From NCBI RefSeq assembly GCF_000787575.1, contig NW_012236499.1, positions 124,001 through 188,000 of the forward strand: DNA of 64,000 bases, given 5' to 3'. The notes beneath the pieces were generated by a model. That model saw nothing but the letters and a program-made list of their open reading frames with translations. It ran no database searches and was not told where the DNA came from. Positions 32,022-53,864 of this stretch are shown one piece after another (within the stretch, counting starts at the first letter, position 1; each line of letters opens with the position of its first letter). Made by a program: the position numbers and the translations under genes. Source of the stretch: Acytostelium subglobosum LB1. Its lineage: Eukaryota; Evosea; Eumycetozoa; Acytosteliales; Acytosteliaceae.

Positions 32022-33588
32022 TGGACAACAACTACATCAACAACAACAACAACAACAACTATGAGCAACAGCAGGTGTTGGACTCACCATTATTAATTGA
32101 GCTCAATAAGTTGTTGACAATTGTCAAGGACAAGATAATGTTGTCAGTATCAGTAGACGATACACATTCGATGAGATAGTCAAGGTCATGCCACAGCTTG
32201 CAATTGTATGTATCGGCAACTAGCTAGATTCATGCTTGCAAGACACTAACAAGGTCGAGATGTTCATCTTTGCTCTTGTAGATGTTTGAGCAACATCCAA
32301 TATTGCGTCAATTAATCTCAGATAGTATATGCTCACTAAATATCCATACCTATCGAGAATACAGTCGCTTTCAATCAAGATGGAGCAAGTGTCGACACTA
32401 ATCATCGAAGTGAGGAGGAACTGGATAGATACAAAGTACCATATAGACTATGTCTAGATGTGGATCGACTGTGTGCAAACATTAGACAATGCGGCATCAG
32501 CATTTTTGACATGGTGATCAGTATCCTGTCAATTGGAAGCATTGGCAAACATAGACTCCCATACAGAGAATTCTGGCTCGATACAACTTTCATCCCTGTC
32601 TTGCTCAATGGACTATCAGCGGCCCAGATTGATACACTTTGCACAAAGTACTTGGAGTACTTCATAACATACATTGCAAATGGAGCTAGAAATGATAGTA
32701 CATGGAGTCAAAATTTCAAGGTATACACGATCATCACGGATATAGTTGGCCAGTCTAGAATCTATGATGACATTGAGCAATGGTTGCCCAAGGTACTCCA
32801 GAAAAATGACCAAGAGGGAGCTCAAAAGAACAAAGATGAATACTCTCAACATTGCCAGTCATTACTCAACTATCTTCTACTGTCATTGCCCAACGACAAG
32901 GACAACCGGATCCGTGAAGTAATTGGCAAACACAAGCATCAGACGTTTGGGTAAGTTCCACCTTACCGCGATCGAATTCATTGATTGATTGAATGAGTGT
33001 AATAACTAACTAACATTTTTGTTTGTTGTCAACAACAGTGCTATCCTCAAAGTGATGGACACAAGATTCTCTAGTAATAGTTGGTACTTAAGGGAGAAAG
33101 ACACTGATCACCTCAAGCAGTTAATCAGCTTCACAAAGGTCAACGACTATGATACCAACAGTGACGCCAACACCCATCAACGACAAGGGATCATGAATCT
33201 AATCAAGAGCCACAAGATCCAGTATACGAATAAGATATTCGAATTCCTGCAGCACCACCTTCAGCCAATCGATCAATATTGTGGCATACTCTTCCAATAT
33301 CTCAACATTTTTAAGATGATGGAATTGATCAAACTCATGGGCCACTTGTAAGTTATATCCATTCTTTCAACATTCATATATGCCTAGAATTATACTGACA
33401 TGTCCACCAATCAAAATTGCCTTCTGTTCTCTTCCTATCCCCAGCACTATGCAAAGTGTGAGGAAGTATTCCTTAAAAAAATAGAGTCTTTGAATAACTT
33501 TAATGATCATGACATGGCTAACATGATAATTGAGCTCATAGATGCCATCATAACATCTTTCAAGTCTGTTGACCAACCACTCCCTTAA
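32022..33588 (+). pseudogene. Array copy 1a: broken, truncated family member (long N-terminal type)
   Basis: Aligned by eye to the copy at 50.5 kb. A start with an Asn run (32022) leads to LDSPLLIELNKLL, the frame then changes near 32147 to RRYTFDEIVKVMPQLAI, and an intron brings MFEQHPILRQLI (from 32280). A further frame change lies before ELDRYKVPYRL, after which a long intact stretch carries IRQCGISIFDMVISILSIGS and QIDTLCTKYLEYFITYI to 32951. An intron leads to the exon from about 33041 to 33348 (MDTRFSSNSWYL ... LIKLMGH), then another to about 33445-33588, ending DQPLP followed by TAA. The rest of the gene is missing: the sequence jumps directly to an N-terminal segment of another copy. 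It is therefore a 5' fragment with at least two frame breaks. Confidence 0.7.
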
Positions 33589-35435
33589 GTATTTCGTCTC
33601 GCTCCAGACCGAACAGTATCTTCAAAACGATCAATTGTGCGAGGCATTGTTCACCTGTCTACTTATGGCGATGTCCAGTGATAGTGTAAATCGGTTCAAC
33701 TGATTGGCCAACACAAGTATCAGACACTCGAGTAAGTATGGATGGGATGGAGTTGAAGGTGAATGAATGCTAACTTAGTCCATCATATCCCATCCATTTC
33801 AATCAAAGACTCATCATCCATGTGTTGGATAATGTCTATGCTCAAGGTAGTATTTGGTTTCATAGTAATATAAACTTCAATCAACTTCTCGACTTGACAG
33901 TGGACAACCAAACTCAACAACAACAGCAGCAGCTGCAGCAACAATTCCAACAACTCATCATCAAGTATCCAATCCAATCAAACGATATATTCCTCTACTT
34001 CCAAAGTCATCTCCAACCGATTGAACAATACTTTGGCATGTTCCTCCCACTTCTCAACAATGACAACCTGCTCAAGATGGTCAAGCTCATGGGCCGTGCA
34101 CTGCCATTGAGAACAGTTACAAGGTGGCCAAACAGAAGTTTAGATCGATCACAAACAAGGACAACGATGAGTGTGTAAAACAGAAACAACAGTTCAAGGA
34201 GTACAAACATCAACGATTACTTGTCCACCGAACAAAGAGCAAGACAACCCCAATCAGCACTTTGAATGAAAGTGCATTGCCAACACTTCCACCACTGATG
34301 ATCAATCATATTGTGAGTATGGCCATTCGATTTGGATTCGGCATTGACACATGGCCATTGTCCTTGAATCAGAGATGGTTGATCTCATTGGCATCGGTCA
34401 ATACTCGTTTCCACAAGGCGTGCACGTTGACATTGGCCACATTTACCATCCCATCATTGGTCATACGCAAGACCATCCGCATTGGATCAAAGTACTGTCT
34501 GTTCAAGATGCCACCACTCCATCTCAGAAGTGAATTAGATCAAGCATGTCCCACAAAGGAAAGGTGCGTTGTGTGCCGAGCGATTGGAGAGCTTGACCGT
34601 GCCATTCACCAAATCCTTTAGCTTGGAGGTGAGAGGATCGTTTCCAAATCTCAAGACAATCAACTTTGTTCAGCTCAATTCGGTCCAATCGACGTGGAGA
34701 TCATAAATCTAGACATCCTACCAAATACAATGGCACTAATCAATGGACTCCTCAACTCTCAGGTCAAGGACAAGCTCGGACTTCAAGCAATCTCATTCAC
34801 AACCAATACATTGGACAATCCATATCGCGACCTGCCCCCTCAACCAGAGTTCAACGATCAATCTGAAGTGCCATATCAACCGTTTGGATCTTGGGCTGCT
34901 AAAGGCTGAAACAGCTCCCTCCGAATCAACCATATTGTCACTGTCACACATCACATCGACCAGGATTAGATCCCTTAGCATTCCATTGTTGCACAAGATG
35001 AACAACCTCACCAGTCTGGAACTCCAGTTCCAGCAATCAGTTCAAGACAATGGTCTTGTTGACAAACTTCAACAGTTCTACGCTGGAGCGCACTCACTCA
35101 ACAAGCTTGTGCTCTATGTCACATCGGTGAATGTGATTCACTTGCTGCCTCATTGCCAGACGACACCAATCAAATCACTCAATTTGATGCTCTATGACAT
35201 GAACCATATGGCCTTTCTCAGTGCCAAGGGCAAGCTTCACCAACTGTTTCACACGATGGCCACACATCTCCAGCAGACCATGATCAAACACTTGGAATAC
35301 CTCTCCATCAATATGAACAACAATGGGTTCATATTTGCATTCAACAACCATTATCTGTCAACGTTGATCACAGCACTCCAACTGCATTGTATCAATGATC
35401 GTCTTCCAATAAACTTCTACAGACTCGTCGACTAG
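33589..35435 (+). pseudogene. Array copy 1b: 5'-truncated, internally deleted family member
   Basis: Begins in mid-domain (QTEQYLQNDQLCEALFTCLL) right after copy 1a, so the junction is chimeric. An in-frame stop follows, then an intron and an exon from about 33810 (LIIHVLDNVYAQGSIWFHSN). Near 34108 the sequence passes from KMVKLMGRALP straight to KVAKQKFRSITNKDND, a loss of roughly 250 codons relative to the intact copy at 35.7 kb. The F-box-like part is recognisable (LPPLMINHIVSMAIRFGF, RWLISLASVNTRFHKACT). Frame changes follow near 34535, 34700 and 34890. The last 500 bases (SLSHITSTRIRSLSIPLLHK to PINFYRLVD) are open. The copy is clearly non-functional as a full protein. Confidence 0.7.
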
Positions 35436-35571
35436 TCGTGTAACGTTGTAGGCGACACCTTGGCTCACAGACAAAATCGCAAAGTCAATCAAATGATTGA
35501 ATGATCAATTTCATTAGCATCAGATCTTCACAATAAGTACATATACTAGACAAACTATGTAATGGTGGACA

Positions 35572-35590
35572 CAGGTCAGTCACAGACCAT
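35572..35590 (+). promoter_or_regulatory. Shared upstream motif CAGGTCAGTCACAGACCAT (copy 2)
   Basis: A 19-base word ending 73 bases before the ATG of the copy at 35664. The identical word sits before the copy at 38590. It contains a partial dyad, GGTC...GACC. The surrounding sequence differs more between the two copies, so the word may be a promoter or leader element. Confidence 0.5.
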
Positions 35591-35663
35591 TCACTCACTC
35601 ACTCACTCTCAAGAGTACATCACAAGACTCATACATTCATACATACTCACAAACATAATATAA

Positions 35664-38384
35664 ATGGTTAACTATAACTCTATATATGATATTGTCAATG
35701 AGATCAAAGGTATATCAGAAGATCAGAGGGATACACAATGTATAGAGTACTTGGAGGTGTTTAAGAGATACCTTGTCTATACAGCATATGATCGTAGTAC
35801 ATGGGATGAATGCAATGCAATGTACAGACAAATCGGTTCTACATTCGGCAAGACACGAGTCGATAATGAACTCCACCAATGGGTGCTCACCGCACTCACA
35901 TCATACCAGTATCAACATGACAATCATCTGAGTGATTCATTGTTCACCTATCTACTAATAGCATTGCACAATGACCAAGATAGAAGGATCAAGACATTGA
36001 TCAGCAAACAAGTAAGCAACCATCAGATACTAGAGTAAGTAGGTAATGATGTACAGTACAAGTCAGACTGTGTAGTGTAGTTACTTACCAACATCATGTC
36101 ACCAACTTTATCAAGGCTTGTAATCAATGCAATGGACAATAGATTTGCTACCAATCATTGGTACTTTCTATTTAAAGATCGCCTCGGTCAGGTATTCAAT
36201 CTCACCAAGGATGACAACAACAACAATAGCAATCAACACCAACAAGAGTTGATATTAATACAACAGCTTATCAACAAGCATCCATCGAAATCAAACTTCA
36301 TATTCTACTTCCTCCACAGTCGTCTCCACTTTACTGATCAATTATGTAGAGTGTTCTTACCATTCCTAAACGATGGCCACTTGATAATAATGCTCGCAAC
36401 GATGAAGAGATCAATGACAAACTCTGGCGAAAGAGGACATGGACTTCCAGCGCCACTGCTTCATCACCTGGACACCCTTCCCATTGAATGTAAATATGAT
36501 TGGAAGAGTATATACTATCCAAGGATAATATGGGTGATCTTTCCGCTCATTCATATGTATGACCTTACAAAGTATGCGGCCTACATTGATCTGGCCATTC
36601 AGGGTCTGTTCATTCAGTCAGTTGATGAATCAATCATCAATAACATGTTCCAGTCGTACACAACCGAGATCAAACAGTTCTTCACCATCAAGAGTAATGT
36701 CCACGAGATTCGTATTGTACACAACTTCAACTTTATGATCAATTGCATCGTTCAATCATTCGTCCCGGATCACCTGGTGCCAGCAATGATCGGCAGATCC
36801 TCAATTCAATTTGCCTACAACAAGGTCACATTCATGTCAACTTGCAAAGACAAATCTAGAGCGTCAGTCAAGTTCATCGACCTCATGTTGGAAAGATATT
36901 GTGGGATGCAAATGAACAATGACAAATCCTTCCAAGAAGACACACTCTACTTTCTGGTCATCAATGTACTTGGTTTCGGCCTCTGTGGCCCAGCATTCCA
37001 TCTGCTCCGATCTCTGTACTGTCTCCGGATCAATCATGAAGATGTGTACAAACTAGCCAAATTAAGATTGAGACCGATCACCCACAACAAGGACAACGAC
37101 GATGATTGTTCCAAACATCGCCAGCTATTCAAGGAGTACAAGGAAAATTTACTAATCAACCGAACATACATTAAGATAACTGCATTGGTATTACCAAAAC
37201 TACCACCACTGGTACTCAATCACATTGTAAGCATGGCCATTCGATTTGGATTCAAAAAGGACACTCGGTTGAGTCAGAGATGGTTGGTCTCATTGGCATT
37301 GGTCAACTGTCGTTTCCTCAAGTCGTGCATGGTGACATTGTCCACCTTTCCCATCCCATCATTGATCATCCACGACAACATACGAGTTTCATCAAAGTAC
37401 TGTCTGTTCAAGATGCCACCACTCCATCTCAGAAGTGATGAGATCAAGTGTGTTCCACACAGGAAGCGTCCATTGTGTGCCGAGCGATTGGTCAGCTTGA
37501 CCATCCCATTCTCCATTACTGATTACCTGCTTGTCAAAGGATCATTACCCAATCTCAAGACAATCAACTTTGAAGAGGTTGAGTTTGTTCCAAATCCTCG
37601 CAAGTGGATCGACAAACGAGAGGACATTGGTGTGGAGTTCATCATGCTAGATTCAAGTTTGACCTATCCCGTCATATTCGATCGGCTGCTCAGTGCACAC
37701 ATCAAGAATAGACATGGACTCCAATCAATCAACATTACAACCAATTCAATTGATAATCCTTTTAGTGACATTAAGGACATTCATCCCCAACAGCAATACT
37801 CGACGATCAATCTAAAGTGCCATGTCAATCGTTTGGAACAATATCAGCCGTCCACATCACCAACAATGTTTGACACATTGTCACACATCTCATCGATCAA
37901 GATTAGATACATAGACATTCCACTGTTGCACATGATGACCAACCTCAGCAGTCTGCATCTCCAGTTCAATCAAACAGCTCAAGACAATGGTATAGTTGAC
38001 AAACTTCAACAGTTCTACGCTGTATCACACACTCTCAACAACCTTGAGCTCCGTTTGGCATCGGAGAATGTGATTCACTTGTTACCTCATTACCATACGG
38101 CACCAATCAAATCACTTACGCTGGCCTTGAATGACATTGATCAATTGGCCGTACTCAGTGCCAAGGGCAAGCTGGACGATCTGTTTGGTACCATAGCTAC
38201 ACACCTCCAAAACACTGTGATCAAACAGTTAGAATACCTCACGATCTACATGATAAAGGAGACCAACATAGGTGATAGCATCATTCCATTCAACATCCAA
38301 TGTCTGTCAGCATTGACCACAGCACTCCAACTGCATTGCATCGATGATCATCATCCAATAAACCTCTACAGACTCGTTGAGTAA
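35664..38384 (+). CDS. Array copy 2: intact F-box-like / LRR-like family protein (879 aa)
   Basis: Two exons, 35664-36034 and 36116-38384, with a GTAAGT donor and CAAG acceptor; the join GA+G restores a Glu found in the other copies. This is the most complete copy and the reference for the family. Residues 1-125 are a helical region (IVNEIKGISEDQRDTQCIEY). Residues 125-470 form a second, mostly helical region including NAMDNRFATNHWYF, a Gln/Asn run and FVPDHLVPAMIG. At about 480-540 comes an F-box-like motif: LPPLVLNHIVSMAIRFGF followed by RWLVSLALVNCRFLKSCM. The remaining 340 residues are LRR-like, with repeated strands such as MTNLSSLHLQFNQT, IKSLTLALNDIDQLAVLSAK and IKQLEYLTIYM. I know no named family for it. 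An SCF adaptor role is inference from the motif alone. Confidence 0.8.
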
Positions 38385-38515
38385 CGTTATCTTTGTTTGG
38401 TGTTGTTTGGGGAAGTCAATCAAATGATTGGCAGATTGTCAGGCAGTTCTTTTGTTTCATTCACATCATACATAATTACATAGTTAGACAAGTGATGGTG
38501 ATGGACTGGACAAGA

Positions 38516-38534
38516 CAGGTCAGTCACAGACCAT
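38516..38534 (+). promoter_or_regulatory. Shared upstream motif CAGGTCAGTCACAGACCAT (copy 3)
   Basis: Identical to the word at 35572-35590 and similarly placed, ending 55 bases before the ATG of copy 3. Confidence 0.5.
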
Positions 38535-38589
38535 ATTATTCATACATTCATTCATACAACAACATAAAGAAGTAACAAAGTAAATCATA

Positions 38590-41431
38590 ATGGATACATC
38601 TGATCAGGAACAACATCAACAACGACAACAACAAAGACAAAGGCAGTACACGTCGGTTGAGATTATCAATGAGATCAAATGTCTGTCACCTAAACAGAGG
38701 GATACACAATGCACAAAGTACTTGGAGATGTTCAAGAGATACCTTGTCGATGCTGAATATGTTACTTGGTATGAATGTAACGATGTGTATAAACAAGTCA
38801 TTACTACATTCGGAAAGACACGCGTCAATCGTGAACTTGACCAATGGGTGCTCACCTCACTTACATCAGACCAGCTAAGATATGATAATCAACTTTGCGA
38901 TTCATTGTTCACTCTACTCATAGCATTGCCTCACAAAGCCATCTCTGACCTAATGATTAGGATCAAAGAATTGGATGGTGTTGGCGAACAAGTAAACCAA
39001 CATCTGATACTCGTGTAGGTAAGAGAGCGGACAACAACAACAACAACAACACTTGAACTAACATTAACATATTAATCACTTTCAAAGGTTGATCATCAAT
39101 GCAATGGATAATAGATTTACCAACAATCACTGGTACATACAAGACGAGAGTCGCCTCAAAATGATATTCAAACTCGCCAACGACTCTGACATTAGTGACA
39201 ACAACAACATCGTTCAACAACAGTTGATCAAACAGCTTATCAACAAGCATCCAACTCAAACCAATATCATATTCCACTTCCTTCATGATCGCATTCGACT
39301 AAACGACCAATTCTTTAGCATGCTCTTCCCATTACTCAATGATAACAACCTGATGTTTATGATTGAAAGAATGGGAGTATCATCCCCGTCCAATTCAAGC
39401 CAAGTCCTTTCAATCTACAACTCATCAGTCAGCTTGGTGACATCAAAGATGACAATGATCAACTTTCAATTGAATTATGAGAAGACAGTCTTGACCCTAC
39501 GACTTTTCAAAGATATAAATATGGCTTGCAAGTCCGCTGGACAATCACTTCCAACATCACTGGTACCACCTGAACATCATTACCATTGGACAAGACTTCT
39601 CGGAGAATATCAAAACGACAAAAAGCATGTGGATGATCATTACGCTCATTCAACTTTATGAAACTACAAAGCGATTGGCCTTCTTTGATGTTGCCATTCA
39701 TTTGTTGCTCGTACAATCTTCGACTGAATTCATCATCGACTACCTCTTCAAGTATAAACCAATTCAGACCAAACTATTCTTTATCAACAATGATGTCCTG
39801 ATTGAGGAGATGGACCAGATTAACAACTTTAACTTTGTTATCAACTGCCTCGTTCAATCTTTCATCCCGGACCACCTTGTACCAGTGATCATTTTAAAAT
39901 CTTTTCCATCTCGTTGTGCGAACAACAAGGTCACATTAACATCTTCTTGCAAAGACAAACTCATGGCATCAATCAAGTTCATCGACATCATATAGGTCTC
40001 TGTGGCCCGGCATCCCATCTTCTCAGATATCTTTATAGTCTTAGAATCAATCATGATGCTGTCTACTTTCGAACCAAAGAGAAGCTGAGATCGATCACTC
40101 ACAAGGACAACCACGACGCTGAATGTGCCAAACAACTCTTCAAACAATTCAAAGATCGATCACTTATCGACCTAACGTACATCAAGAACATCAAGCAGGG
40201 GGACAAGGTGACAACCACAACGTATGGTACACTTGCATTGGTATTGTCAACACTTCCACCACTGGTGATCAATCATATTGTGAGCATGGCCATTCGGTTT
40301 GGATTCAACAAGGGCAACGCCTTGCCTCAGGGTTGGTTGATCTCATTGGCATTGGTCAATAGTCGATTCTTCAAGGCGTGCAAGTTGACATTGTCCAACT
40401 TTGCCATCCCATCATTGATCATCTATGACAACATACGAGTTGCATCAAAGTACTGTCTGTTTAAGAAGCCACCACTCCATCTCAGAAGTGATGAGATCAG
40501 GTGTGTCCCATACAGGAAGCGTCCATTGTGTGCCGAGCGATTGGAGAGCTTGACCGTGCCATTCTCCATCTTTGAGTATCTGCATGTCACTGGCACGTTA
40601 CCCAATCTCAAGACAATCAACTTTGAAGAGGTTGAGATTATTCCAAGGTTTCGCAAGTGGCTGGACAAACGTGATGATATTAGTGTGGAGCACGTCATTA
40701 TACCTATATATATGCTCGACCCAAGAGTGATCTACCCAATCGTATTCAGACGGTTACTCAGATCACACATCAAGGACAGACATGGACTCCAATCCATCAC
40801 GTTCACAACCAGAACATTGGACAATCCGTTTGGGGACATGAAGGATCTCCTACAACAAGATCAGAGCGCAACAACTATCAATCTTAGGTGCTACGTCAGC
40901 AATTTGACTAAATACGATACCACAACGACATTCGACTCATTGTCGCACATCACATCGATCAATGAAGGACTCATAGCCATCCCTTGGTTACACAAGATGA
41001 CCAACCTCACCAGTCTCCATCTTCAGTCCGACCAATCAGGTCAAGACCAAGGTATGATTGACCAACTTCAACAGTTCTACTTTGGTACGCACTCCCTTAA
41101 CACTCTGGAGCTAAACATATCGTCAGCGAATGTGATCCGTTTGTTGCCTCGTTGTAAGACGACACCAATCACATCACTCACTTTGGCCTTCACAGATATT
41201 GATCGTTTGGCCGTACTCCATGTCAAGGGCAACCTGCACTCTCTGTTTGGTACCATAGCTACACATCTCCAACAGACCATGATCAAACAGTTGGAATACC
41301 TCACCATCTACATGAAGCCCAACAACATACCATTCAGCAAACATTGTCTGTCAGCATTGACAGCACCACTCCAACTGCATTGCATCAATGATAATCAGCC
41401 AATAAACTTCTACAGACTAGTCAATGTGTAG
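38590..41431 (+). pseudogene. Array copy 3: frame-broken family member
   Basis: Same two-exon plan as copy 2: exon 1 from 38590 to about 39015 (QYTSVEIINEIKCLSPKQRD), intron GTAGGT...AAAG, then exon 2 from about 39088. The frame changes near 39600, where DDHYAHSTL runs into a stop while the family sequence continues one frame over as MWMIITLIQLYETTKR. It changes again near 39990, where about 30 codons present in copy 2 are missing and IDII is followed by a stop; the sequence resumes as GLCGPASHLLRYLYSLR. From there to 41431 the frame is open for 470 codons, including the F-box-like LPPLVINHIVSMAIRFGF and all of the LRR-like part, ending PINFYRLVNV. A shorter protein from the downstream frame is conceivable but unproven. 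Sequencing error could explain the first break but not the deletion. Confidence 0.7.
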
Positions 41432-41554
41432 TAACGTTATCGTTTTTGATCAAAAAATTGGATGTGCTGAGTATGCAAACACTTTCAATCATTCACTCAT
41501 TAATTTGATCACATCGCAACATCATAGATAGAGATAGATAGATTTAGACAAACG

Positions 41555-41581
41555 ATGGCCGTCGAGTTTAAACACAACTAA
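41555..41581 (+). other. Upstream ORF before copy 4 (MAVEFKHN)
   Basis: A complete 8-codon upstream ORF 27 bases before the main ATG of copy 4. Copy 5 has a counterpart at 50385-50429 ending MFKPN. The two share the ending F-K-(H/P)-N-stop and the flanking GATAGATAGAT leader. They may be leader peptides, or relics of an older first exon. Confidence 0.4.
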
Positions 41582-41608
41582 CTAGTTAGTTCATTCATTC
41601 AAGGAGAC

Positions 41609-43850
41609 ATGACATCACAAGGTTTAGACATGAACAATGAGCAGGAACTTAACAACCTGATTGAGATGTTCAAACTCATGGGTCAATCATTGCCACATGT
41701 AAGTCAAGCCCTCGCCTCGCTCGGTCCCGCGTACCCATTGATGACGGCACTGACATTCACTATCATATCATCCTTAGAACTTTGCAACCCACGAGAGTAT
41801 GATCATATCAAAGCTTACCTCTGTTGGATGGGGGAAGAATGAATCATCAGAGTCGGCCTTTCTTCTGTCTGATACCATCATATCATCGTTCAAATCATCT
41901 GGCCTACCTCCTCCATCATCCCTGGTTCAATATTTGAACAGCACTACAATAGATCGTGACCATACACCGCCAAAGGTCGACTTGGTAGAGCTACTCATTC
42001 GCATGTATGACGTGACCAAGCGAGAGACCTACTTTGAGTTGGTGATGCTAATGCTGATCAAGATACCATCGACTCAATCGATGATTGATCGCCTCTTCCA
42101 GTCGCATCCAACCGAGATCAAACTATTCTTCACCAAGGAGTCCAACATTGACAAGATGGCCACAATGGCGATCAACCTCAGCCTGGTGATAAACTGCATC
42201 GTTCAATCATTCGTCCCCGATCATTTGGTACCGTTGATCATCGGCAAATCATCACCATCATACACACGATGTGATAGCAACGTCGTATTCACATCAACTT
42301 GCAAGGACCAGTCCAGAGCATCGATCATGTTCATCGACATCATGTTTGATGGCTATCATGGAGAGATGAAATGGGGCACCGACAAACTACATTCTTACTT
42401 CAATAATGTCAATATGGACTATGTCAGCATACTTGTGAAAAATGTCCAGGAGGTAGGACACTGTGGCCCAGCATACCATCTGCTCAGATACCTATACAGT
42501 CTCCAACACATTTGTATTGGTTACAAAGATGTCAAGCTCAAGTTGAGATCGATCACTCACAACATGGACAACGAAGACGAATGTGCCAAACAACGACAAC
42601 TCTTCAAAGAGTTCAAACAACAATCATTATTCAACAACCAACCAAAGAAGAAAAAGGTCACCAAACGAGTCAACGAGTCGTTGCCAGCACTTCCACCATT
42701 GGTGATCAATCACATTGTGAGTATGGCCATTCGATTTGGATTCAACAACGACACTGGACTGAGTCAGAGATGGCTTATCTCATTGGCATTGGTCAACAGT
42801 CAATTCCACAAGACATGCACTTGGACATTGACCAACTTTGCCATCCCTTCATTGTCAATTGGCCAAGATATCCCAACTACGTCAACCTACGGTCTGTTCC
42901 AGAAGACACCACTACATCTCAGAAGCACAGAGATCAAGCACGTCCCACAAAGGAAGGGTTCATTGTGTGCCTCGCGATTGATGAGCTTGACCGTGCCATT
43001 CTCCAAAGGCGTTTGTTGGGCGGCTAGGGGCTCGTTTCCAAATCTCAAGGCAATCAACTTTATTCAGCTCGATGCTATTCCAAAGCAACAGAATGGCATT
43101 TACAAACGAGATCCCATTGTCGTTGAACGAATGCATCTCGAATCACTAAATGCGCCGACACTATTCAGCCAACTGCTCGGTACTCTTGTCAATGGCAGAC
43201 ATGGACTACAATCAATCAGCGTTACGACCAGTGCACTGGACAATCCATTTGATTACCTACCCCTTCAACAGAGTTCAACGATCAATCTGAAGTGTCATGT
43301 CGACCGTTTGAATCTTGGGCAGCTCACGTCTTCCGAGACAACAACATCCACCATGTCACTTTCGCATATCACATCAATCAAAGTAGTATCCAAAGACATA
43401 CCATTGCTATACAGGATGACCAACCTCAGCAGTCTGCATCTCCAGTTCAATCAACCAGTTCCAGACAATGGTATGATTGATCGACTTCAAGAGTTCTACG
43501 CTGGAACACTCACTCTCAATACACTTGTGCTCCATATGTCGTCAGTGAATGTGATTCACTTGTTGCCTCATTGCCAGACGACACCAATCACATCACTCAC
43601 ATTGGCCTTCACTGACATTGATCGTTTGGCCATGCTCAATGTCAAGGGCAAGCTGCACCAACTCTTTGACACGATGGCCACACATCTCCAACAGACCATG
43701 ATCAAACAGTTGGAATACCTCTCGATCTACATGACCAATCAGTCCAACATCATCATTCCATTCAACATCCAATGTCTGTCGCCATTGATCACTGATCTCC
43801 AATTGCATTACATCAATCCAATAAACTTCTACAGACTCCTCGTCGACTAG
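41609..43850 (+). CDS. Array copy 4: N-terminally short but intact family protein (720 aa)
   Basis: Two exons, 41609-41698 and 41778-43850, with a GTAAGT donor and CCTTAG acceptor at the same place as an intron of copy 5. The protein starts with a new 30-residue head (MTSQGLDMNNEQELNNLIEM) that joins the family at FKLMGQSLPH, so it lacks the first two N-terminal segments of copies 2 and 5. The rest is full: PTEIKLFFTKESNIDKM, FVPDHLVPLIIGKSSPS, GHCGPAYHLLRYLYSLQ, a KKKKVTKRVNE basic patch, the F-box-like LPPLVINHIVSMAIRFGF and RWLISLALVNSQFHKTCT, then the LRR-like half ending NFYRLLVD. The open frame and the normal codon choice support function. The short head suggests that it arose from a 5' truncation that captured a new start. 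Confidence 0.75.
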
Positions 43851-44196
43851 TCTTGTAACGTTCGTTGAATGAGCGATGAGTTTTCAAACTCTTTATTTAT
43901 TTAGTCCTTTGATCACTTTACACTGTGCACACTTTTGATGTATGAACAAAAACAGTAAGTAGACCATTCATCATTGAATATTATCTCGATATCCAAGATA
44001 GTCAAACATACAATTCCAATCGATTGACATACATTCAGCTCATCGATCATTGCAAACTAGTTAAAGTGTGATCGACCAAACATACAACCCAATCTGTAAT
44101 GATAGAAATGGAATGATTACACTTTATTCATGGTTGTTGGGACAGAGGTTAGGCAGGCGTCAATACGGAGGCTGATAGATGGAGGCTGAGACTAGT
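43851..44196. other. Spacer after copy 4
   Basis: AT-rich 3' flank of copy 4 leading into the minisatellite; no gene seen. Confidence 0.5.
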
Positions 44197-44445
44197 GGCA
44201 GAATGGCGACAGAGGTCGGAGACAACATGGCGGCAGAGGTCAAAGACAAGATGGCGACAGATGTCAGTCAGCATGGCGGCAGAGATCAGAGACAACATGG
44301 CGACAGAGATCTGGCAGCATGACGGCAAAGGTCAGAGACAGAATGGCGGCAGAGGTCAATCAGCATGGCGGCACAGGTCAGGCAGCATGGCGGCAGAGGT
44401 CAATCAGCATGGCGGCAGAGGTCAAGAAGCAAGGCGGCAACCGAG
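44197..44445 (+). repeat. Minisatellite, 22-24-base unit with core ATGGCGGCAGAGGTCA
   Basis: About ten to eleven imperfect units, each starting ATGGCGGCAGAGGTCA or ATGGCGACAGAGGTC and ending AGACAAC, ATCAGC or similar. An 89-codon open frame passes through it (WRQRSKTRWRQMS) but reflects the repeat only. The GCAGCATGGCGG core also occurs in the larger array at 48.3-49.5 kb. Confidence 0.85.
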
Positions 44446-46336
44446 GTTCGGGTCTACAAGGTAACAAAGATTCAAGACATGGTTATATGTATGTATGAGT
44501 AATGTGTAAAAGTAAGAGAGATAAGAATGAATTAATCAATGAGAGATGAAGTGCACTGAGTATTTATAGCTGTCTATGTCACACCCACCATTCATCCTAC
44601 CATCATTGACGGATTTTGAAACCCAGCCGTTATCTTTCTGCGGATTTAAGATCATTGGATGAATTCAAATTCAAAAAACCCAATAACCGACAACACCACC
44701 ATTGTGTGAACTTCACTTGTTCGAAGTTCGTCAGTAACAGTGTGGAGGCATTTAGCCCACCAGATATTTGTCGATTCGTTCAACAACACCAACACTTCGC
44801 TCATTCATTACATTAACATTCAATTAATACAACGGTTGCATACTTATAATATATATATTTATCTATCTCATCATTTGGTGTCATCGTGACATTGATTAAT
44901 ATTCATGAACAACAATCAATCAATCAATCTTGTTCATCCACCTGGTGACAATAGCACATTTGTGTAGAGCTACCTCTAGAGGGTCTATCCAATCATGCTA
45001 GTGTCACTAGTTGGATCAAGACATGTATCAACGAGATAACATGGTCACCATGCAATGTGTCTGCTCTACAGACAGTACCAATCATCAAGTCGGCCAGGTT
45101 CGTCGAGCACCTTGGGCAATTCTATGCTCGCCATCCCACACCCGCAGTTGCCCACCAACCATCCTCAACTTCAAGATTCACAATCATCGTGGCGAGGACG
45201 CCATCGTGAAGGAGATAGAGATAATCCCATGGCAGGATTGAATCAATACTCAGTTACAGCAAGATCGAGCACATTCGCCTCATAGCAGGGCCAGTCTCAC
45301 ACTGGTGACATCTTCGTCTAACTTCAAGCGCTCTTGGTACCAAGCCGTAGATGTCCTTGTCGGGCTTGTATGCGCTCTCCAATCGGAATGGTAATTGGTA
45401 TCTTTAACGCCACCCAGCCGGTTGTCAATGAACCTGGCAACTACCGCCTTCAGGATCACATCCAAACTCAAGACTCATGAAGGCCTGCTATATCAAAGAT
45501 GGACACCGCAGAGGCAGTGATGTTGCAGTTCATCATGTCGAGCCCAAGATAAACGTTACTGATAACAACCTGGACAAGAAGCTGTCATCGTCACCAACTC
45601 ATTCGATTGTTACAGTTGCGAATGACAGGTACATCTTGGCAAATCGAATTGGACAATCTTCGTTTGACTCGTTGGATTGAATGATAAGGTCACTCTGTGT
45701 CACTCATAGATCGTTAGTCGCGAGCCACTTCACCATCAATGAATCCTTAGAGCTTTAGGACTGAGCAACATCTAATTAGACAGCACTGGTCCATCAACAT
45801 CAGTGAGGACATGGCTAGACATCATATGGGAAAGGCACCATGTATCGCATCACAAAGGCAAACACATTTAGTCAACATGGCGCCAGTGAGAGAGACAATC
45901 TTGCGAGCAGGTACCAGTCCATCAAATATTGTTTCACGCAGCGCGATAACAACATTGGATCAAATGTCTGTCTAATAGGGTGTGTGTGGGAGCTGGAATG
46001 GCTAGTCAGTCAGTCAGTCAATCAGGCAGGTCGGTCACATCAAGGTCGAGCACATTAGTTCTCCATCGCCAGTTGGGATTGATGAACAAGACCCTAGGTC
46101 AAAATCGATTACAGGCAAACATATCAAGACAAAACCTGGCGAACTCCAATCAAGCGACATGTATCACCATTGACCATTGATACAACATTGCACCAACCCT
46201 CATTCAATCGATTAATCAAACATACATAAACAGGCGGACTGAGATGGTATTGAGTGATACAAATTCAAATGGACCGTTAAATGGTCAATCTGTTAATTAA
46301 ATATATTTAAATATTTAATTCAAAATGTGTCTTTAA

Positions 46337-46367
<31 letters not shown>

Positions 46368-46787
46368 CGGGAGTGTCTCTATCCACCCACTCACAGACAC
46401 TCTCTCATTGCGGTGAATGTCCTTGGACAAGTGGGCATTGACATCACTCATTACCATATCACACTATTACATGTATGTACACATATATAACATTATTACA
46501 ATGTTACTATAATACTATCATCATTCTAATTCATAATACTAACATTGATTCTCTCTCACCAACCATCTAATTCATCAATAAATCAATCAATATCAATCAA
46601 TCATATCAATCTTACATTCTCTCTCACCAATCAATCAATTCAATATCAATCAATCATATTATTATTATTATAGACTCTCTACTTCGGCTTTTGCCAAACA
46701 ATTATCTACACAACTATAATATCACTTTAAACAGTGTTTTCCAACACTACTACGCCTTCTTCAACTCGATTTATTATTATTATTACA
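44446..46787. other. Decayed region without intact gene
   Basis: No intact gene. Bases 44464-44745 resemble 49731-49935, the flank of the second minisatellite (shared GAATTCAAATTCAAA and GTGAACTTCAC words). Between 45000 and 46150 the base composition is coding-like, with short frames such as VTVANDRYILANRIGQSSFD and HNHRGEDAIVKEIEIIPWQD that break repeatedly; part of this (ACAGGTACATCTTGG) recurs at about 50150. I take this as one or more old pseudogenes of unknown family. A (GT)n run lies at 46336-46369, and (TCAA)n/AT-rich DNA precedes 46788. Confidence 0.4.
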
Positions 46788-47521
46788 ATGCAATTTAATT
46801 ATATTCAATCACTCTATCCACCAGCCAAGCCCCTTAGACTGTTGTTTGACCCCACAGTTCCCAAGACCTTGCTTCTGGCCACCAAAAAAGGCACGATCAT
46901 CAAGAAGTTCAAGGTCTTCATTGACATTGGCGCGACACTTCTCATACTCCCATATGTCAAACCAATCAGACCACTGTTCGACAACAGGCGGCCAAAGATT
47001 TTATTTGGAAAGGATCAAGATGGAGTCAATTTCTCACGCAGGGTTCCTCTTGATGTCGCATTTGTCATTGCGAATACTGTCCCATACGCTCCTCTCAACC
47101 AGGAGAATAGTAATGTCCAACTCATTCACTGTATCTGTCTCAGGATATTACGATCGTTACCTGTCTACCCCAGAAGGCAACCAGTATCCACCCCAAATCA
47201 AATGGGACCAAATTGTATGTTTACCATAAAAGAACTCATTCATTCATTGATTGAGTGATGTCTGCCTGTCTGCTGTCAAACCAAGTACTAACCATCCTCG
47301 TCCATGTCCTTTTCATCCAAGACAATGAAATCAATCAACAACATTCCGACCTCCGACCGAGACCTGGAGACCAACTAGATCCAACATTACCATCCAGTCA
47401 TCCAGTCACCCAAGAAGACATTGGCCACCACCAACAACTCAGATACCAATATCCACCATCACCAGATTATTTGGTGGATGAGCCTGTCCTATCTCCTCCG
47501 GTCCCTCTCCTTTTCAATTAA
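46788..47521 (+). CDS. Uncertain two-exon gene of unknown function
   Basis: An open frame starts at 46788 (MQFNYIQSLYPPAKPLRLLF) and can be joined from about 47213, before GTATGT, to about 47322, after CATCCAAG, to end at 47521 (YQYPPSPDYLVDEPVL). The product would be about 208 residues, without signal peptide or membrane span. The middle is doubtful: from about 47105 a second frame (FTVSVSGYYDRYLSTPEGNQ, then YPPQIKWDQI) looks more protein-like than the first, so there may be a frame break there. The word VPLDVAFVIANTVPYAPL faintly recalls the C-terminal domain of arrestin-like proteins, but this is too weak for a call. Codon choice in the first 100 codons is like that of its coding neighbours. 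Confidence 0.4.
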
Positions 47522-48267
47522 TTCTCACCTATATATATCTTGCCGTCGATCAAGCAGATGAGTGATGGGTATAACCCAAATATCTCTCGGCTGGCGATTG
47601 AAACCAATCAACCACCAACAATCAACAACCAACAACAACAATCAACAACAACAACATCAAAGTCGAGTTACCAACCCACCAATCAGTGGTCCTACATCCA
47701 TCACCCGAACCAGATGACACAGTGGAGACGTTGTGATTCATTCACACGATGACCTGTCGTTGCGAGGTCTATTCCCTCCAAGTCAATTCAGTGCCTTGCC
47801 AGTGCCGTGCCAGACCGAGTGCCATGCCGCCGAGCCAAGCCAGGCCAAGCCGAGGTGGACCTTTCCAGGACCGTATACTACTAACATTTCCTCCCATCAC
47901 CATTTGGCCATCTCCGCAAGGAGGTGGCCGTGGCCCATCATGCAAGAGGGATGGGTCGGCCTGTCATGCAAGAGGGACGGGTGGGCCCACCATGTAAGAG
48001 GGGTGGGCACGGCCTGGGGACTACACCTGTCGCTATTAGACTTTGGGCACGTCGAGACAGGTATGGCAGCAACTTTGTTGACTTTGAGAGTTTCTTCTCA
48101 TTGTCACAAGTGCTGCCTTTATTTTTTTTAAAGCCGTTGGGCAGCAACCGTGCCCAGGCGACATCATTGAGTTGTACTTTTCCAATTGTTGTTATTCTCC
48201 TTCCAAGTCACACTTGTACAACTCCTGTCTTCATCGTTTATTAATGCTTTGATTATGATCATTCCAG
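47522..48267. other. Spacer with Gln/Asn-type repeat and short GC-rich repeat
   Basis: A 64-codon frame at 47561-47752 (ISRLAIETNQPPTINNQQQQ) might be a further exon or a relic. GC content rises sharply from 47790 and includes the 26-base tandem repeat listed separately. No supported gene. Confidence 0.4.
47932..48009 (+). repeat. Three tandem 26-base GC-rich units
   Basis: Three consecutive units with the core CATGCAAGAGGG(A)TGGG. They differ from each other at several positions, so the array is not very recent. Confidence 0.75.
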
Positions 48268-48284
48268 TTGGATACACTCATCAA

Positions 48285-49480
48285 CTTGGCAAGATGGCGG
48301 TTAGTCAATGATGGCAACACGGCGGTTGTCAGCGTGGCTGTCTGGTTGGAGACAGAGGTCTGGACAGTGGTCAACTCGAGATGGACAACTTGGCAGCATG
48401 GCGTCGCACTTGTCAGCGTGGCTCTCTGTCTGGTTGGAGTCAGAGGTTGTCGACGGTGGCCATCTTGGCAGCATGGAGGGGCAACAAGGCAGGCGGTAGT
48501 CAACGTGGCAGATAGTCAAGTTGGAGACAGAGGTCCTGAACTATGGTCAACGTGGCAGCATAGTGGCATTCTAGTTGGAGACAGAGGTTCTGGGCTGTGT
48601 CCAACTCGAGATGGACACTTTGGTAGCCTGGTGGTGGTCAGCATGGCGGAGTCTGTCTTGTTGGGTACAGATGTTCATGGCTGTGGACAACTTGGCAGCA
48701 TGGCAAAAGTCCAGATAGAGAAGAGGTTGTGGGCTGTGGTTGGCAACACGGCGGCTGTCTGTCCGGATAGACCACAGAGGTTCTGGACAACTTGGCAACA
48801 TGGTGGACGACTGTACAGATGGAGATAGAGGTTCGTGGCTGTGGTCCACGTGGCAGCACGTCGGCAGTCAGTCAAGTTGGAGACAGAGGTTCTGGGCTGT
48901 GGACAGCTTGGCATGGACAACCTGGCAGCATGGNGGTGGTCAGAATGGCAGAGTCACAATGGGACTGTCTAGACAGAGGTTCTGGGCTGTGGTCAGTCAG
49001 GGCACATGGCGACCTCATTCTAGATGGAGACAGAGGTTCGGGGGTGTAGACAACTTGGTAGCATGGCGGTGGTCAGCATGGCCGAGTCACAAAGGCGGCC
49101 GTCTGTCTAGTTGGAAACACTAACTTGGACAAGGACTACCCAGAGGTCTTCAAGGCACAAGGGAAGACAGAAGAGAAGGGAGAAGAGAATGGTGTAAGTA
49201 AGAAGAGTATAGGTGAGCAGCTGTGCGATCATTGGTGTAGTAGTACTCACTCATTGAGGGACAGAGGTTCAGGGCTAAGGTCACTCAAGGCAGCATGGTG
49301 GAGTCCTGCCGTCTGTTTCGTTGGAGACAGAGGTTCTGGGCTGTGGTCAACATGGCTGTGGCAGACGGCGGACGTCTGTCAAGATGGTGACAAAGGTTCA
49401 TGGTCAACGTGGAAGCACGACGGCAGTCTATCAAGATGGAGACAGAGATTCATTGCAACATGGCAGCACGGCGGACGTGA
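48285..49480 (+). repeat. Large degenerate GC-rich minisatellite (about 1.2 kb)
   Basis: Many imperfect units built from the words TTGGAGACAGAGGTTCTGGG, CTGTGGTCAACTTGGCAGC and ATGGCGGTGGTCAGCATGG, with spacing of about 55-75 bases. An undetermined base lies at 48934. Open frames of up to 186 codons on the plus strand and several on the minus strand pass through because the unit lacks stops in more than one frame; they have no protein character beyond the repeat. The core AGCATGGCGG and GACAGAGGTC words link it to the array at 44.2 kb. Confidence 0.8.
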
Positions 49481-50384
49481 TTGAGATACAGGTGGTGAAC
49501 ACTGACTTTGACAAGGACCACACAGCGGGCTTCAAGGCACAAGGTCAAGGGAAGGCAGAAGAGATGAAGAGGATAGTGTAAGTAAACAGCAAATGGTGGT
49601 GCAATTAGAAGTCAAGTAGTACTCACTCATTGATTGGTATCATAACTCAAACTCATTAGTAACTCATCTGCAGTAGTGAGACAACAAGGCACAACAACAG
49701 TGGTGAGGATACATGTCAATGTGTTGTTTATTATTGATAAATTAGTATAAGTATAAGCATAAGTATGTATATATGTTTATGTGTATGTGTACAAGTAGGA
49801 GAGAGTGAGTGCAATGCCAATGAGATGAGTGGAACATGTGGGCCACACCAACCGTAAACTAGATTAGCATGGGAGGGAATTTCAAATTCAAATTTAATCA
49901 CCCACAACACACACTTTTTGAACTTCACACATTTTAATGGTCAAGAGGTGGACAGTGCCACTTTGATACATGGAGCCCAAGCCCATCATGCTTGTGATGC
50001 TGTCGGACAAGATTGTTCTCTAAGTATCACTCCAAAGGCTTACGCAGGATCAGCCAGTTGATCGTCTATTTCGGTCACTTGTCCAGACCAAACATGCAGC
50101 TTGGTCCCTTCACCTCTTTGGATCACTCGACAATTTCACACAGTTGCGTACGACAGGTACATCTTGGCCACCATGATCAAAAGTACCTACTCCATCGGTT
50201 AGACCCCTGACGTCTAGATTGGACCAAATGTGCACCAGAGTTCGTCACCCAATAAACTTCTGCCGACTCGTTGAGTAACATTAATCAATGCAAATGTGTT
50301 TGATAAATTTGGGAGAGTTAGATTCATTCATTCATTTGTGGTCACAGATACACACATAGAGATAGATAGATAATTAGACAATTG
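49481..50384. other. Flank of minisatellite and relic of an array copy
   Basis: Bases 49731-49935 resemble the flank of the 44.2 kb minisatellite. From about 49950 to 50210 the DNA is coding-like but broken, partly similar to 45.6 kb. The 35 bases at 50244-50279 encode PINFCRLVE and a stop, matching the C terminus (PINFYRLV) of the array family, so a 3' remnant of a further copy lies here. Confidence 0.5.
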
Positions 50385-50429
50385 ATGGCTTCAAGATCAA
50401 CGACTAGTGATATGTTCAAGCCCAACTAG
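50385..50429 (+). other. Upstream ORF before copy 5 (14 codons)
   Basis: ATG at 50385 reads MASRSTTSDMFKPN and stops, 64 bases before the main ATG. It parallels the upstream ORF of copy 4 in place, leader sequence and last residues. Confidence 0.4.
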
Positions 50430-50493
50430 CTCATTCAATCTAATCAACAAGTACTACCTCTGAATAATTTAAATATATATAGACATCATCACC

Positions 50494-53400
50494 ATGAACT
50501 CACCATTCATTATAGACCTCAACAACATGTTGCTCAACAACAAATTCAATAACAATGGAGCAAGACCAAGGTATTCATTCATTGACATTGTCAGTGTAAT
50601 CACACAAGTGGCAACGGTAAGTTTGTTTGATTGATTCAATTGATTGATTGATTGATTGAGGTCTAACACAACCAACCTAGATGTTTGAGCAACATCGGAA
50701 ATTGCGTCCATACATAGTTGAACATTTACGTTCACTAGAGATAAGTAGGGAATACATTGCCTACTACGATGACAAAGAAGGAGAAAGACACTACATACGT
50801 ATTCTGAGTGAGGTGGAAGTGGATCAAAATAGAACACCGTATGAGGTGTTTCTCCAAGTGTGGAACCTTTGTGAAGACATTCGTCGATGCAACATCAGTA
50901 TCTATGACGTAGTGACCAGTCTCTTGTCAATTGCCATGATTGAGAGACGTTGGCTCACTTCACCCAACTTCTTGATCGATACATCGTTTATCTCATACCT
51001 TACCATTGGTCTGTCTCAAGCTCAGATGGATACTTTGTGCACACTGTACTTGGAGTACTTCAAAGGATACATTGACAGAGGTTCCCATACTTGGGACGAA
51101 CATCTTGGCCTGTACAATCTTATCATAACTACGTTCGGCCAGACCCGTGTTGCCCATGGTTTCGAGCGATTGGTGCTCCTCTCACTCCAGAGAGACACTC
51201 TTTGCCAGAGCGATAAACAATGCGTGTCATTGTTCAACTGTTTACTTTTAACGCTTCCCAATGACACTGACCAACGAATCAGTGGAATGATTCGTCAATA
51301 CAAACAACAGACGTTCGAGTAAGTAACATGGTCTGCATTATGTATTCAAGAGTTAATGAACTAACGCCTTGATTGATATAAAGGATCATCATCAATGCGA
51401 TTAAGAATAGAGTATTGGCACGCAAATGGTGGATCAAAGAGGACAGTGTTCTCCATCAGATTATTTACTTGACACAATTGGACAACAGTGACCAAAAACA
51501 ACAACAACAACAACAACAACAACGACAGGAGATCCTCCATCAGGTGCTCAACAAGGGTAGAGACCTAACGAATATCATTTTCCAATACTTCAAACAACAT
51601 TTTCACCCGATTGAACGATATTGTAATGTGCTCTTTCCTCAACTCTACTTAGACAATCTTATCACGATGGTGAGGCTCATGGGCCCATCACTTCCATATG
51701 TAAGTCAATCCTCGCTTGCCACTCTCACCCAATAACCACTGACTCGCATCACTTCAATCTTCGTCCAATTCTAGCACTTTGGAACCCATGGGGCCTATCT
51801 CCTTTCAAAGATTGGCAATTCATCAAGCTTTAAGTGGTACAATTCATCAATACTTCTCACCGATGCCATTGTGTCATCGTTCATTGCAGCTGGCCAACCA
51901 CCTCCACAAATCCTATTACAATTCTTGAACACATTGCCGATCAATCCAAAAATTGATCGAAACAAACCAACCATTGAATGGATAGAGCCACTCATTCACA
52001 TTTTCGACTTGACCAAGCGAGTGGACTTCTTTCAATTGGCGATGCAGTTGCTGTTCAAAACAAAATCATCATCAACTCAATCGATCATGGAGAATCTCTT
52101 CCAGTCGCATCCAACCGCAATCAAGGAGTTCTTCACCAAGCAGTCCAATGTTGACCGGATGGACAATGTAACCAACCTCAGCCTGGTGATCAATTGCATC
52201 GTTCAATCATTGGTCCCTGCTAACTTTATTAAAGTTATCATGGACAAGTCATCTCCATCTCGCTACAACAACAGTGATAACAAGGTCATATTCACATCAT
52301 CGTGCACCGACCTCTCGAAAGCATCGATCATGTTCATCGACATCATGTTTGAAGGTCTTTATGGAACCAGGAGATGGACCAACATCGGTACAGACACATC
52401 CCATTAATCAAAGGGATGTGACCAATTTAGTTGTGGAGCATGTTCAAACAATTGGTCTGTGTGGCCCAGCATTCCATCTGCTCAAATATCTCTACTGTCT
52501 CCAACTCAATGATAACTACTACACCAGTATCAAAAAGAAGTTGAGATCAATCACACACAATGACACCGCTGAAGAATGTGTCAAACACCAACAGCAATAC
52601 ATATTCGACCGAGCATATATCAAGAACATGAAGGAAGGCAATACAACCGTCGCACCAGTTGATACCCGCCTTGGAATGGCATTGCCAACTATTCCAAAAT
52701 TGGTGATAAATCACATTGTGAGTATGGCCATTCGCTTTGGATTCAACAACAACAAGGACAAGGACAAAGGAGAAGAGACGTTGAGTCAGAGTTGGCTTTT
52801 ATCATTGGCACTGGTCAACACCCATTTCCTCAAGGAGTGCATGGTGACATTGACCAACTATGCGATCCCATCACTGATCATTCATTCAACAATCTGGATT
52901 GAATCAGAGTACTGTCTGTTCCAGCAGCCACCACTCCATCTCAGAAGCAATGAGATCAAGTTCATTCCAAAGGAGAACTTACAATTGTGTGATGATCGAC
53001 TGGAGAGCTTGACTGTACCATTCTCCAAACGCACCTGTTTGGCAGTCAAAGGCGCGCTGCCATGTCTCAAGACAATCAACTTTGTTCTGGTCGGCAATGA
53101 TGAATTGCCCAAACTGCAGAATACACGTAATAACTTTGGTGTGTTCCGCTATGATATTCACAAAAGTACTTCACTGTACAGTGTACACATTGATCAAATA
53201 TCATGTCAACACACCTAGACATGGATTCAAATCAATCACTTGTACGACCAATTCTCTCATCAACCCATATCAGGACATACTCCCTGGACAAGCTTCAGCG
53301 ATCCACATGATATGCAAAGTCGACCGTTTGAAATGTGGTCCCACAACAACCAAGAAAACATTGTCACACATCACATCGTTCAAGGATGTATTCGAATCCA

Positions 53401-53864
53401 TAGCATTGTTGCACATGATGACCAACCTTACCACTTTGCATCTTCAACCGTCAAAGTCTAGCAGATTGAACATTGGTATGATTCGCCAACTTCGACAGTT
53501 CTACGCTGGAACACTCACACTCAACACGCTAGTGCTCCACGTAACAACAGTGAATGTGATTCACTTGATGCCTCATTGTCGTACGACACCAATCAAATCA
53601 CTCACACTGGCATTCACTGACATTGATCAATTGACCTTTCTCTTTGCCCTGGGCAAGTTGGATGATCTGTTTGGGGCGATGGCCACACATCTCCAACAGA
53701 CCATGATCAAACAGTTGGAATACCTCACCATCTACATCATCAAAGAGTCCAACTCCGCCATCATTCCTTTCAATATCCAATGTCTGTCAGCATTGATCAC
53801 ATCGCTCCAACTTCATTGCATCAATGATCGTTATCCAATAAATTACTACAGACTCGTGTCGTAG
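50494..53864 (+). pseudogene. Array copy 5: long-type family member with two frame breaks
   Basis: Exons 50494-50616, 50681-51318, 51384-51699 and 51775 onward join with consensus splice sites and phase agreement. They show the fullest N terminus of the family: MNSPFIIDLNNMLLNN, YSFIDIVSVITQVAT, MFEQHRKLRPYIVEHLRSLE and QMDTLCTLYLEYFKGYIDRG, then a Gln run at about 51500. The frame breaks near 52400, after NIGTDTSH, with the family sequence continuing one frame over as INQRDVTNLVVEHVQTIGLC. It breaks again between about 53140 and 53220, where the QISCQHT frame stops and PRHGFKSITCTTNSL resumes. The rest runs to PINYYRLVS at 53864. Only two small shifts separate it from a full-length frame, so this copy is either recently inactivated or affected by sequencing error. 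Confidence 0.7.

What the first reader, a model, noticed from the sequence alone, without database searches (positions are those of the whole stretch)
32022..53864. Tandem array of an unassigned F-box-like / LRR-like gene family
At least six copies in the same orientation share a three-part layout: an N-terminal helical region, a motif around LPPLVINHIVSMAIRFGF plus RWLISLALVN that fits a diverged F-box, and an LRR-like half ending PINFYRLV. I know no named family for it. Two copies are intact and at least four are broken, the pattern seen for fast-evolving recognition families. A role as substrate receptors of SCF ubiquitin ligases, perhaps in self/non-self or defence, is only inference. The directly seen facts are the repeats, the motif and the decay.
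Basis: partly seen in the sequence, partly recalled or inferred. Interest (0 to 1): 0.8.

Follow-up and report, generated by a model that had tools for sequence, protein, structure and literature searches.

The report
Large divergent F-box/LRR amoeba gene family
The array is the largest local cluster of a roughly 60-gene family in this social-amoeba-like genome whose proteins most likely pick targets for destruction by the cell's ubiquitin system, using a badly worn F-box that standard domain searches miss.

Summary
Five copies carry the central motif; a sixth is an N-terminal relic; all lie in one orientation. Copies 2 (879 aa) and 4 (720 aa) are open; 1a, 1b, 3 and 5 are broken. The array is not isolated: two genome searches together give 60 cores. 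The window holds the largest of 12 small clusters, and its five copies form one clade. Elsewhere 35 of 55 cores sit in open frames of 680 aa or more.

The motif is a divergent F-box. Pfam nearly misses it, but a profile of 21 family cores matches a profile of 20 ordinary F-boxes of the same genome (probability 92.6, P 4.6e-7), far above shuffles and other family segments. The C-terminal half models as an LRR-like solenoid, the N-terminal half as helices, with modest confidence; the N-terminal half accompanies the core genome-wide.

Best reading: a lineage-expanded family of SCF ubiquitin-ligase substrate receptors. In pairs outside the window the core usually evolves slowest; inside this array its dN/dS is not lower. 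Nothing exceeds neutrality convincingly, so self/non-self or defence is unproven.

The parts
32022..33345 (+). copy 1a: relic with N-terminal exons only (32340-32951 like copy 5 exon 2; 33040-33345 like exon 3)
   Evidence: copy 5 exon 2 matches 32397-32948 at 45%
33440..35435 (+). copy 1b: broken copy; exon 3, F-box core and LRR half kept, most of the helical half missing, several frame changes
35664..38384 (+). copy 2: open two-exon gene, 879 aa (spliced by hand); F-box at 37197-37343 (residues 373-421 of P0001)
38590..41431 (+). copy 3: broken; short N-terminal exon like copy 2, frame change near 39.6 kb, stop at 39993 with a deletion
41609..43850 (+). copy 4: open but N-terminally short gene, 720 aa in two exons (spliced by hand)
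50249..50278 (+). C-terminal scrap, perhaps of a further lost copy (PINFCRLVE-stop)
   Evidence: read by eye; short, so tentative
50494..53864 (+). copy 5: fullest gene layout (exons 50494-50616, 50681-51320, 51384-51699, 51775 onward, by hand) but two frame changes near 52.4 and 53.2 kb

Best explanation
The array belongs to a lineage-expanded family of about 60 SCF-type ubiquitin-ligase substrate receptors. Each full protein has an N-terminal alpha-helical half, a divergent three-helix F-box with a variable insertion between helix 1 and helix 2, a conserved linker (consensus GSxYCLFxxPPLHL), and a C-terminal LRR-like solenoid. The F-box would dock on Skp1/Cul1; the LRR, and perhaps the helical half, would bind substrates, which are then ubiquitinated. 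Copies arise by local tandem duplication, diverge most in the helical and LRR parts, and die by truncation and frameshift. Shown here: family, linked N-terminal half and core, F-box homology by profile, duplication, decay. Partly shown: LRR fold, slower evolution of the core. Inferred: Skp1 binding, ligase activity, substrate binding.
For: F-box: hhalign of A2 (21 family cores) against A3 (20 of the best 23 PF00646 hits of the same genome) gives probability 92.6, P 4.6e-7, score 35.0; best of 100 column shuffles of A2 by P-value scores 16.8, best of 100 shuffles of A3 17.3; of 22 sliding family segments the two with the whole motif score about 36, two with a large part of it about 26, the other 18 at most 13.6. 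In 22 members, one reaches Pfam F-box-like at E 0.0037 and one F-box at 0.027 (whether the same member is not shown). LRR: strand/helix alternation; top Foldseek hits mostly LRR chains, among them TIR1, COI1, D3, MAX2 and FBXL17 entries. Fixed architecture: 25 of 26 genome matches to an N-terminal query lie 0.8-2.1 kb 5' of a core on the same strand, serving 24 cores. Slower core: mean pairwise identity 0.37 (F-box) and 0.41 (linker) against 0.19 (main helical part), 0.32 (segment before the F-box), 0.21-0.23 (LRR); core dN below LRR dN in 6 of 7 non-window pairs. SCF parts: 2 Skp1 matches, several cullins. Precedent: in Dictyostelium 38 Skp1 interactors have F-box-like sequences if insertions between helices are allowed, 24 of these with receptor-like domains; most receptor domains predicted among the interactors are LRRs (PMC9485057, section 7).
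Against: Window copies show no Pfam F-box at E 10 or better; five members scanned, three of them not in A1, gave no Pfam family at E 0.1; none of the 60 cores lies within 600 bp of the 57 Pfam F-box hits of this genome. The AlphaFold models are weak: F-box residues below pLDDT 50 in both, Foldseek TM-scores 0.35 or less. A PDB profile search with the core found no F-box protein. Among the window copies the F-box (dN/dS 0.37-0.77, once 1.41) and linker (0.24-0.76) are not more constrained than LRR (0.38-0.63) or helical part (0.32-0.46); in L017/L020 core dN/dS (0.72) exceeds that of the LRR (0.36). No Skp1-binding, expression or protein data.
Confidence: 0.72

Rival explanations
1. The F-box is ancestral but worn: the proteins bind Skp1 weakly or not at all and act as helical/LRR scaffolds or sensors outside SCF ligases.
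For: Pfam does not recognise the motif in window copies; the most conserved stretch is the linker after the F-box, not the F-box itself (0.41 against 0.37); within the array F-box and linker dN/dS are no lower than those of LRR and helical part.
Against: Family-wide the F-box helices stay more alike than the helical and LRR parts, with core dN/dS of 0.14-0.28 in 5 of 7 non-window pairs (the other two 0.72 and 0.84).
Confidence: 0.15
2. NLR-like intracellular immune sensor: helical part plus LRR, with the F-box match being incidental.
For: Foldseek's first hits for both models are NLRC4 chains and chains of the mouse cytoplasmic lattice (which holds NLRP proteins, recalled); NLRP2, NLRP9 and NLRP14 entries follow for the second model.
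Against: TM-scores of these hits are 0.33 or lower; no NACHT or NB-ARC among the 12 Pfam families listed for 22 members; the model without the helical half gives much the same first hits, so the LRR part suffices to explain them.
Confidence: 0.04
3. Genomic drift: expansion and decay of F-box genes without a recognition arms race, most copies being dispensable. Compatible with the best explanation on molecular function.
For: Four of six array copies are broken; window dN/dS by domain 0.24-0.77 apart from one value of 1.41 on 49 codons and one saturated pair; none above 1 in 7 non-window pairs. Drift has been proposed for plant F-box genes (PMC3030570, search listing and start of abstract only).
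Against: 35 of 55 cores elsewhere keep open frames of 680 aa or more and most non-window cores are under purifying selection.
Confidence: 0.3

Closest known systems
F-box/LRR (FBXL-type) SCF substrate receptors, e.g. plant TIR1/COI1 and FBXL17
   Same: F-box followed by an LRR-like solenoid; F-box homology by profile-profile comparison; these entries are among the Foldseek hits
   Different: long N-terminal alpha-helical half, insertion inside the F-box, a conserved linker; mostly below Pfam detection
Dictyostelium Skp1 interactors with degenerate F-boxes and LRR-type receptor domains (PMC9485057, section 7 and passages)
   Same: degenerate F-box with insertions between helices, LRR-type receptor part; probably the same clade of amoebae
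   Different: no family with this three-part layout is named in the passages seen; homology to individual D. discoideum proteins could not be tested
FNIP-repeat proteins of dictyostelids
   Same: large lineage-expanded LRR-type family; one member lies in this window
   Different: no FNIP match among the Pfam families listed for 22 members
Expanded F-box families of nematodes and plants
   Same: birth and death of many copies with a kept F-box (recalled; plant and nematode cases also from search listings and abstract starts)
   Different: homology beyond the F-box not tested; no selection above neutrality shown here

Membership tests
F-box protein | F-box motif homologous to other F-boxes | tested here: met
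   hhalign probability 92.6, P 4.6e-7; none of 200 shuffles and none of the 18 segments with little or none of the motif comes near. The fold itself is not confidently modelled
F-box protein | recognition by curated Pfam F-box models (diagnostic rather than defining) | tested here: inconclusive
   1 of 22 members at E 0.0037 for F-box-like, 1 of 22 at 0.027 for F-box, bit scores not shown; 0 of 60 cores within 600 bp of the 57 genome hits of PF00646
F-box protein | binding to Skp1 and assembly into SCF | not testable with these tools
   Skp1 and cullins exist in the genome
LRR protein | LRR solenoid | tested here: inconclusive
   top Foldseek hits mostly LRR chains, E down to 2.9e-5, but TM 0.35 or less; Pfam LRR_4 in 3 of 22 members, best E 0.076
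FNIP-repeat family | FNIP repeats (PF05725) | tested here: not met
   not among the 12 families listed for 22 members; a true FNIP protein in the window scores 3.2e-71
NLR (NACHT/NB-ARC-LRR) | NACHT or NB-ARC nucleotide-binding domain | tested here: not met
   not among the 12 families listed for 22 members

The most novel reading that the evidence does not exclude
A private, fast-turnover set of about 60 two-armed SCF receptors, roughly doubling the recognisable F-box repertoire of this amoeba (57 Pfam hits found, a lower bound), in which the Skp1-docking core is kept alike by constraint and local gene conversion while the helical and LRR arms diversify, serving recognition of variable targets such as non-self cell factors or microbial proteins.
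Probability: 0.12. Interest if true: 0.75.

Novelty: new variant of a known kind. Interest (0 to 1): 0.45.

Why it matters
A family of about 60 likely ubiquitin-ligase receptors, about as many as the Pfam-detectable F-box matches found in the genome (57, a lower bound), is nearly invisible to standard domain annotation. It helps explain why protist F-box repertoires are undercounted, and it gives a concrete set of intact genes with which to test whether dictyostelid F-box expansion is drift or target recognition.

Tried and rejected
Pfam scan of ten window pieces: no F-box; LRR_4 at E 0.076, 0.14 and 0.39, and chance-level hits, one of them a viral multigene family (DUF249, E 0.15). PHROGs: nothing for P0001. 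PDB sequence searches: P0001 gave a repebody at E 0.013 and Holliday-junction resolvases at 0.45 and worse; the core profile gave two irrelevant hits. Viral contigs: no match with P0001. Second AlphaFold job on F-box plus LRR only: lower mean pLDDT than the first (52.8 against 64.5), higher pTM (0.48 against 0.37). Considered and rejected: NLR (no NACHT/NB-ARC), FNIP family (no FNIP repeats), transposon or virus origin (no convincing match). Gene conversion: third-position identity is patchy along the window copies (0.62-0.90 in residues 361-480 against 0.31-0.67 in residues 1-300). Longest-run permutation gives P 0.05 or less in 11 of 19 pair tests over three overlapping sets, uncorrected; for copies 2/4 it is 0.001 in two sets and 0.07 in the third. 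Core dS is below LRR dS in 7 of 7 non-window pairs, strongly in L037/L038 (0.029 against 0.127) and L070/L071 (0.185 against 0.917), weakly in L030/L076 (0.917 against 1.115). Suggestive only. The view that the family is not in print rests on searches and on PMC4334915 (section 7 and passages), PMC9485057 (section 7 and passages), PMC10539598 and PMC3559258 (passages only); supplements were not available to me.

Full report
What is there. The window is bases 124001-188000 of contig C23 of a 30.7 Mb, 56-contig genome. Window G+C is 40-48% in 8-kb steps. Between 32.0 and 53.9 kb six same-strand units of one gene family are found. Five carry the central core, one is an N-terminal relic, and a short C-terminal scrap at 50249-50278 hints at one more. 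Copies 2 and 4 are open (879 and 720 aa after splicing by hand); copies 1a, 1b, 3 and 5 are broken. Copy 5 shows the fullest layout: a short first exon, a 213-aa exon, a 105-aa exon and the long exon. Copies 2 and 3 share a shorter N-terminus, and copy 4 starts at a short exon.

Family size. P0001 (the open frame of the long exon of copy 2) hits 55 places, several genes in more than one piece. Searches with cores of two distant members each gave 61 matches from 63 candidates; merged they are 60 separate cores. They fall in 12 clusters (members under 15 kb apart) and 30 singletons; the window's five is the largest cluster. Of the 55 outside the window, 35 lie in open frames of at least 680 aa, 41 of at least 550 and 4 below 300 (open-frame lengths, counted); an open frame does not prove a working gene. 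A tree of 34 cores puts the five window copies in one clade (support 100/99), so the array most likely grew in place.

Architecture. A query from the N-terminal part of an unlinked member matches 26 places, of which 25 lie within 3 kb 5' of a family core on the same strand, serving 24 cores. The N-terminal half is therefore a standing part of the protein, though too diverged to be found before every core; copy 5's own exon found only 7 places, 4 of them in the window. AlphaFold with a 13-row, window-only alignment gives helices from residue 9 to about 422 (10-residue means of 53-91 over 151-350), then alternating strands and helices from 472 to 753 (10-residue means mostly 52-85); mean pLDDT 64.5, pTM 0.37. 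The F-box stretch has helices at 376-389, 399-408 and 410-422, but with pLDDT below 50, so this is weak support. Top Foldseek hits are mainly LRR proteins, among them the F-box/LRR entries TIR1, COI1, MAX2, D3 and FBXL17, with TM-scores of 0.35 or less; lower ranks are mixed. Pfam is nearly blind: of 22 members scanned, three touch LRR_4 (best E 0.076), one F-box-like (0.0037), one F-box (0.027), plus nine other single chance-level families; five members scanned, three of them new, gave none at E 0.1.

Test of the F-box. From the same genome I took 20 of the best 23 of the 57 PF00646 matches, aligned them (A3), and compared the profile with that of 21 family cores (A2). hhalign aligned LP...I...(insertion)...L...VSxxFxxxC with the F-box consensus at probability 92.6, P 4.6e-7, score 35.0. 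In 100 column shuffles of A2 the best by P-value scored 16.8; in 100 shuffles of A3, 17.3. Of 22 sliding 105-column segments along the family alignment, the two that hold the whole motif scored about 36, two that hold a large part of it about 26, and the other 18 at most 13.6. I take the F-box homology as shown at the sequence-profile level. No canonical F-box hit lies within 600 bp of a family core. A search of PDB chains with the core profile found no F-box protein.

Evolution. Mean pairwise identity in 18 nearly full members (four fragmentary rows of A1 dropped, 153 pairs) is 0.19 in the main helical part, 0.32 in the segment before the F-box, 0.37 in the F-box, 0.41 in the linker after it, and 0.21-0.23 in the LRR. 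In seven non-window pairs dN in the core is lower than in the LRR in six; the exception is L017/L020 (0.210 against 0.207). Core dN/dS is 0.14-0.28 in five pairs, 0.72 in L017/L020 and 0.84 in L037/L038; LRR dN/dS ranges from 0.34 to 0.94. Among the window copies the picture is different: dN/dS is 0.37-0.77 in the F-box, except one 49-codon comparison (copies 3 and 1b) at 1.41 where dS is only 0.127; 0.24-0.76 in the linker; 0.38-0.63 in the LRR; 0.32-0.46 in the helical part, one pair there being saturated. So inside the array the core is not the most constrained part by this measure; several copies compared there are broken. Overall: purifying selection, faster arms family-wide, no positive selection shown. 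Synonymous divergence is uneven along the window copies, and core dS is below LRR dS in all seven other pairs; gene conversion is a possible cause, with modest and uncorrected support.

Mechanism. Skp1 (2 matches) and cullin genes are present. In Dictyostelium, 38 Skp1 interactors carry F-box-like sequences if insertions between helices are allowed, 24 of them with receptor-like domains, and most predicted receptor domains among the interactors are LRRs including FNIP (PMC9485057, section 7). The present family fits that pattern: a worn F-box with an insertion between helices 1 and 2, ahead of an LRR-like half. I therefore commit to SCF substrate receptor, with Skp1 binding and substrates inferred.

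Novelty. The A. subglobosum genome paper lists lineage-dependent expansions for families seeded on D. discoideum genes; its Table 2 has FNIP, IPT/TIG, colossin, delta-endotoxin-domain, cellulose-binding and polyketide-synthase families, but nothing recognisable as this family, and 'F-box' has no occurrence in its main text. Whether D. discoideum or other dictyostelids have members could not be tested, as no other dictyostelid genome or proteome was on hand. The kind (expanded F-box/LRR receptors) is known; the three-part layout and this family appear undescribed in what I could read.

Noticed in passing
window 44199-44439: Minisatellite of about 22/46 bp units (CAGCATGGCGGCAGAGGTCAGA) between copies 4 and 5; repeats with similar wording by eye are spread over 48.3-49.5 kb.
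   Followed up: partly
window 15076-16428, minus strand: A 450-aa FNIP-repeat protein (Pfam FNIP E 3.2e-71, 8 stretches) whose N-terminus also looks F-box-like by eye.
   Followed up: partly
window 31236-31610, minus strand: Neighbour with a weak match to the RETREG/ARL6IP reticulon-homology domain, E 0.00037, below Pfam's cut-off.
   Followed up: partly
window 54070-56834: Downstream multi-exon gene; resembles EFR3-type proteins from memory only; no Pfam match at E 0.1 for the long frame 55140-56831.
   Followed up: no
window 45054-45800 and 50040-50240: Two intergenic stretches share phrases such as ACAGGTACATCTTGGC (by eye), possibly decayed gene remains.
   Followed up: no
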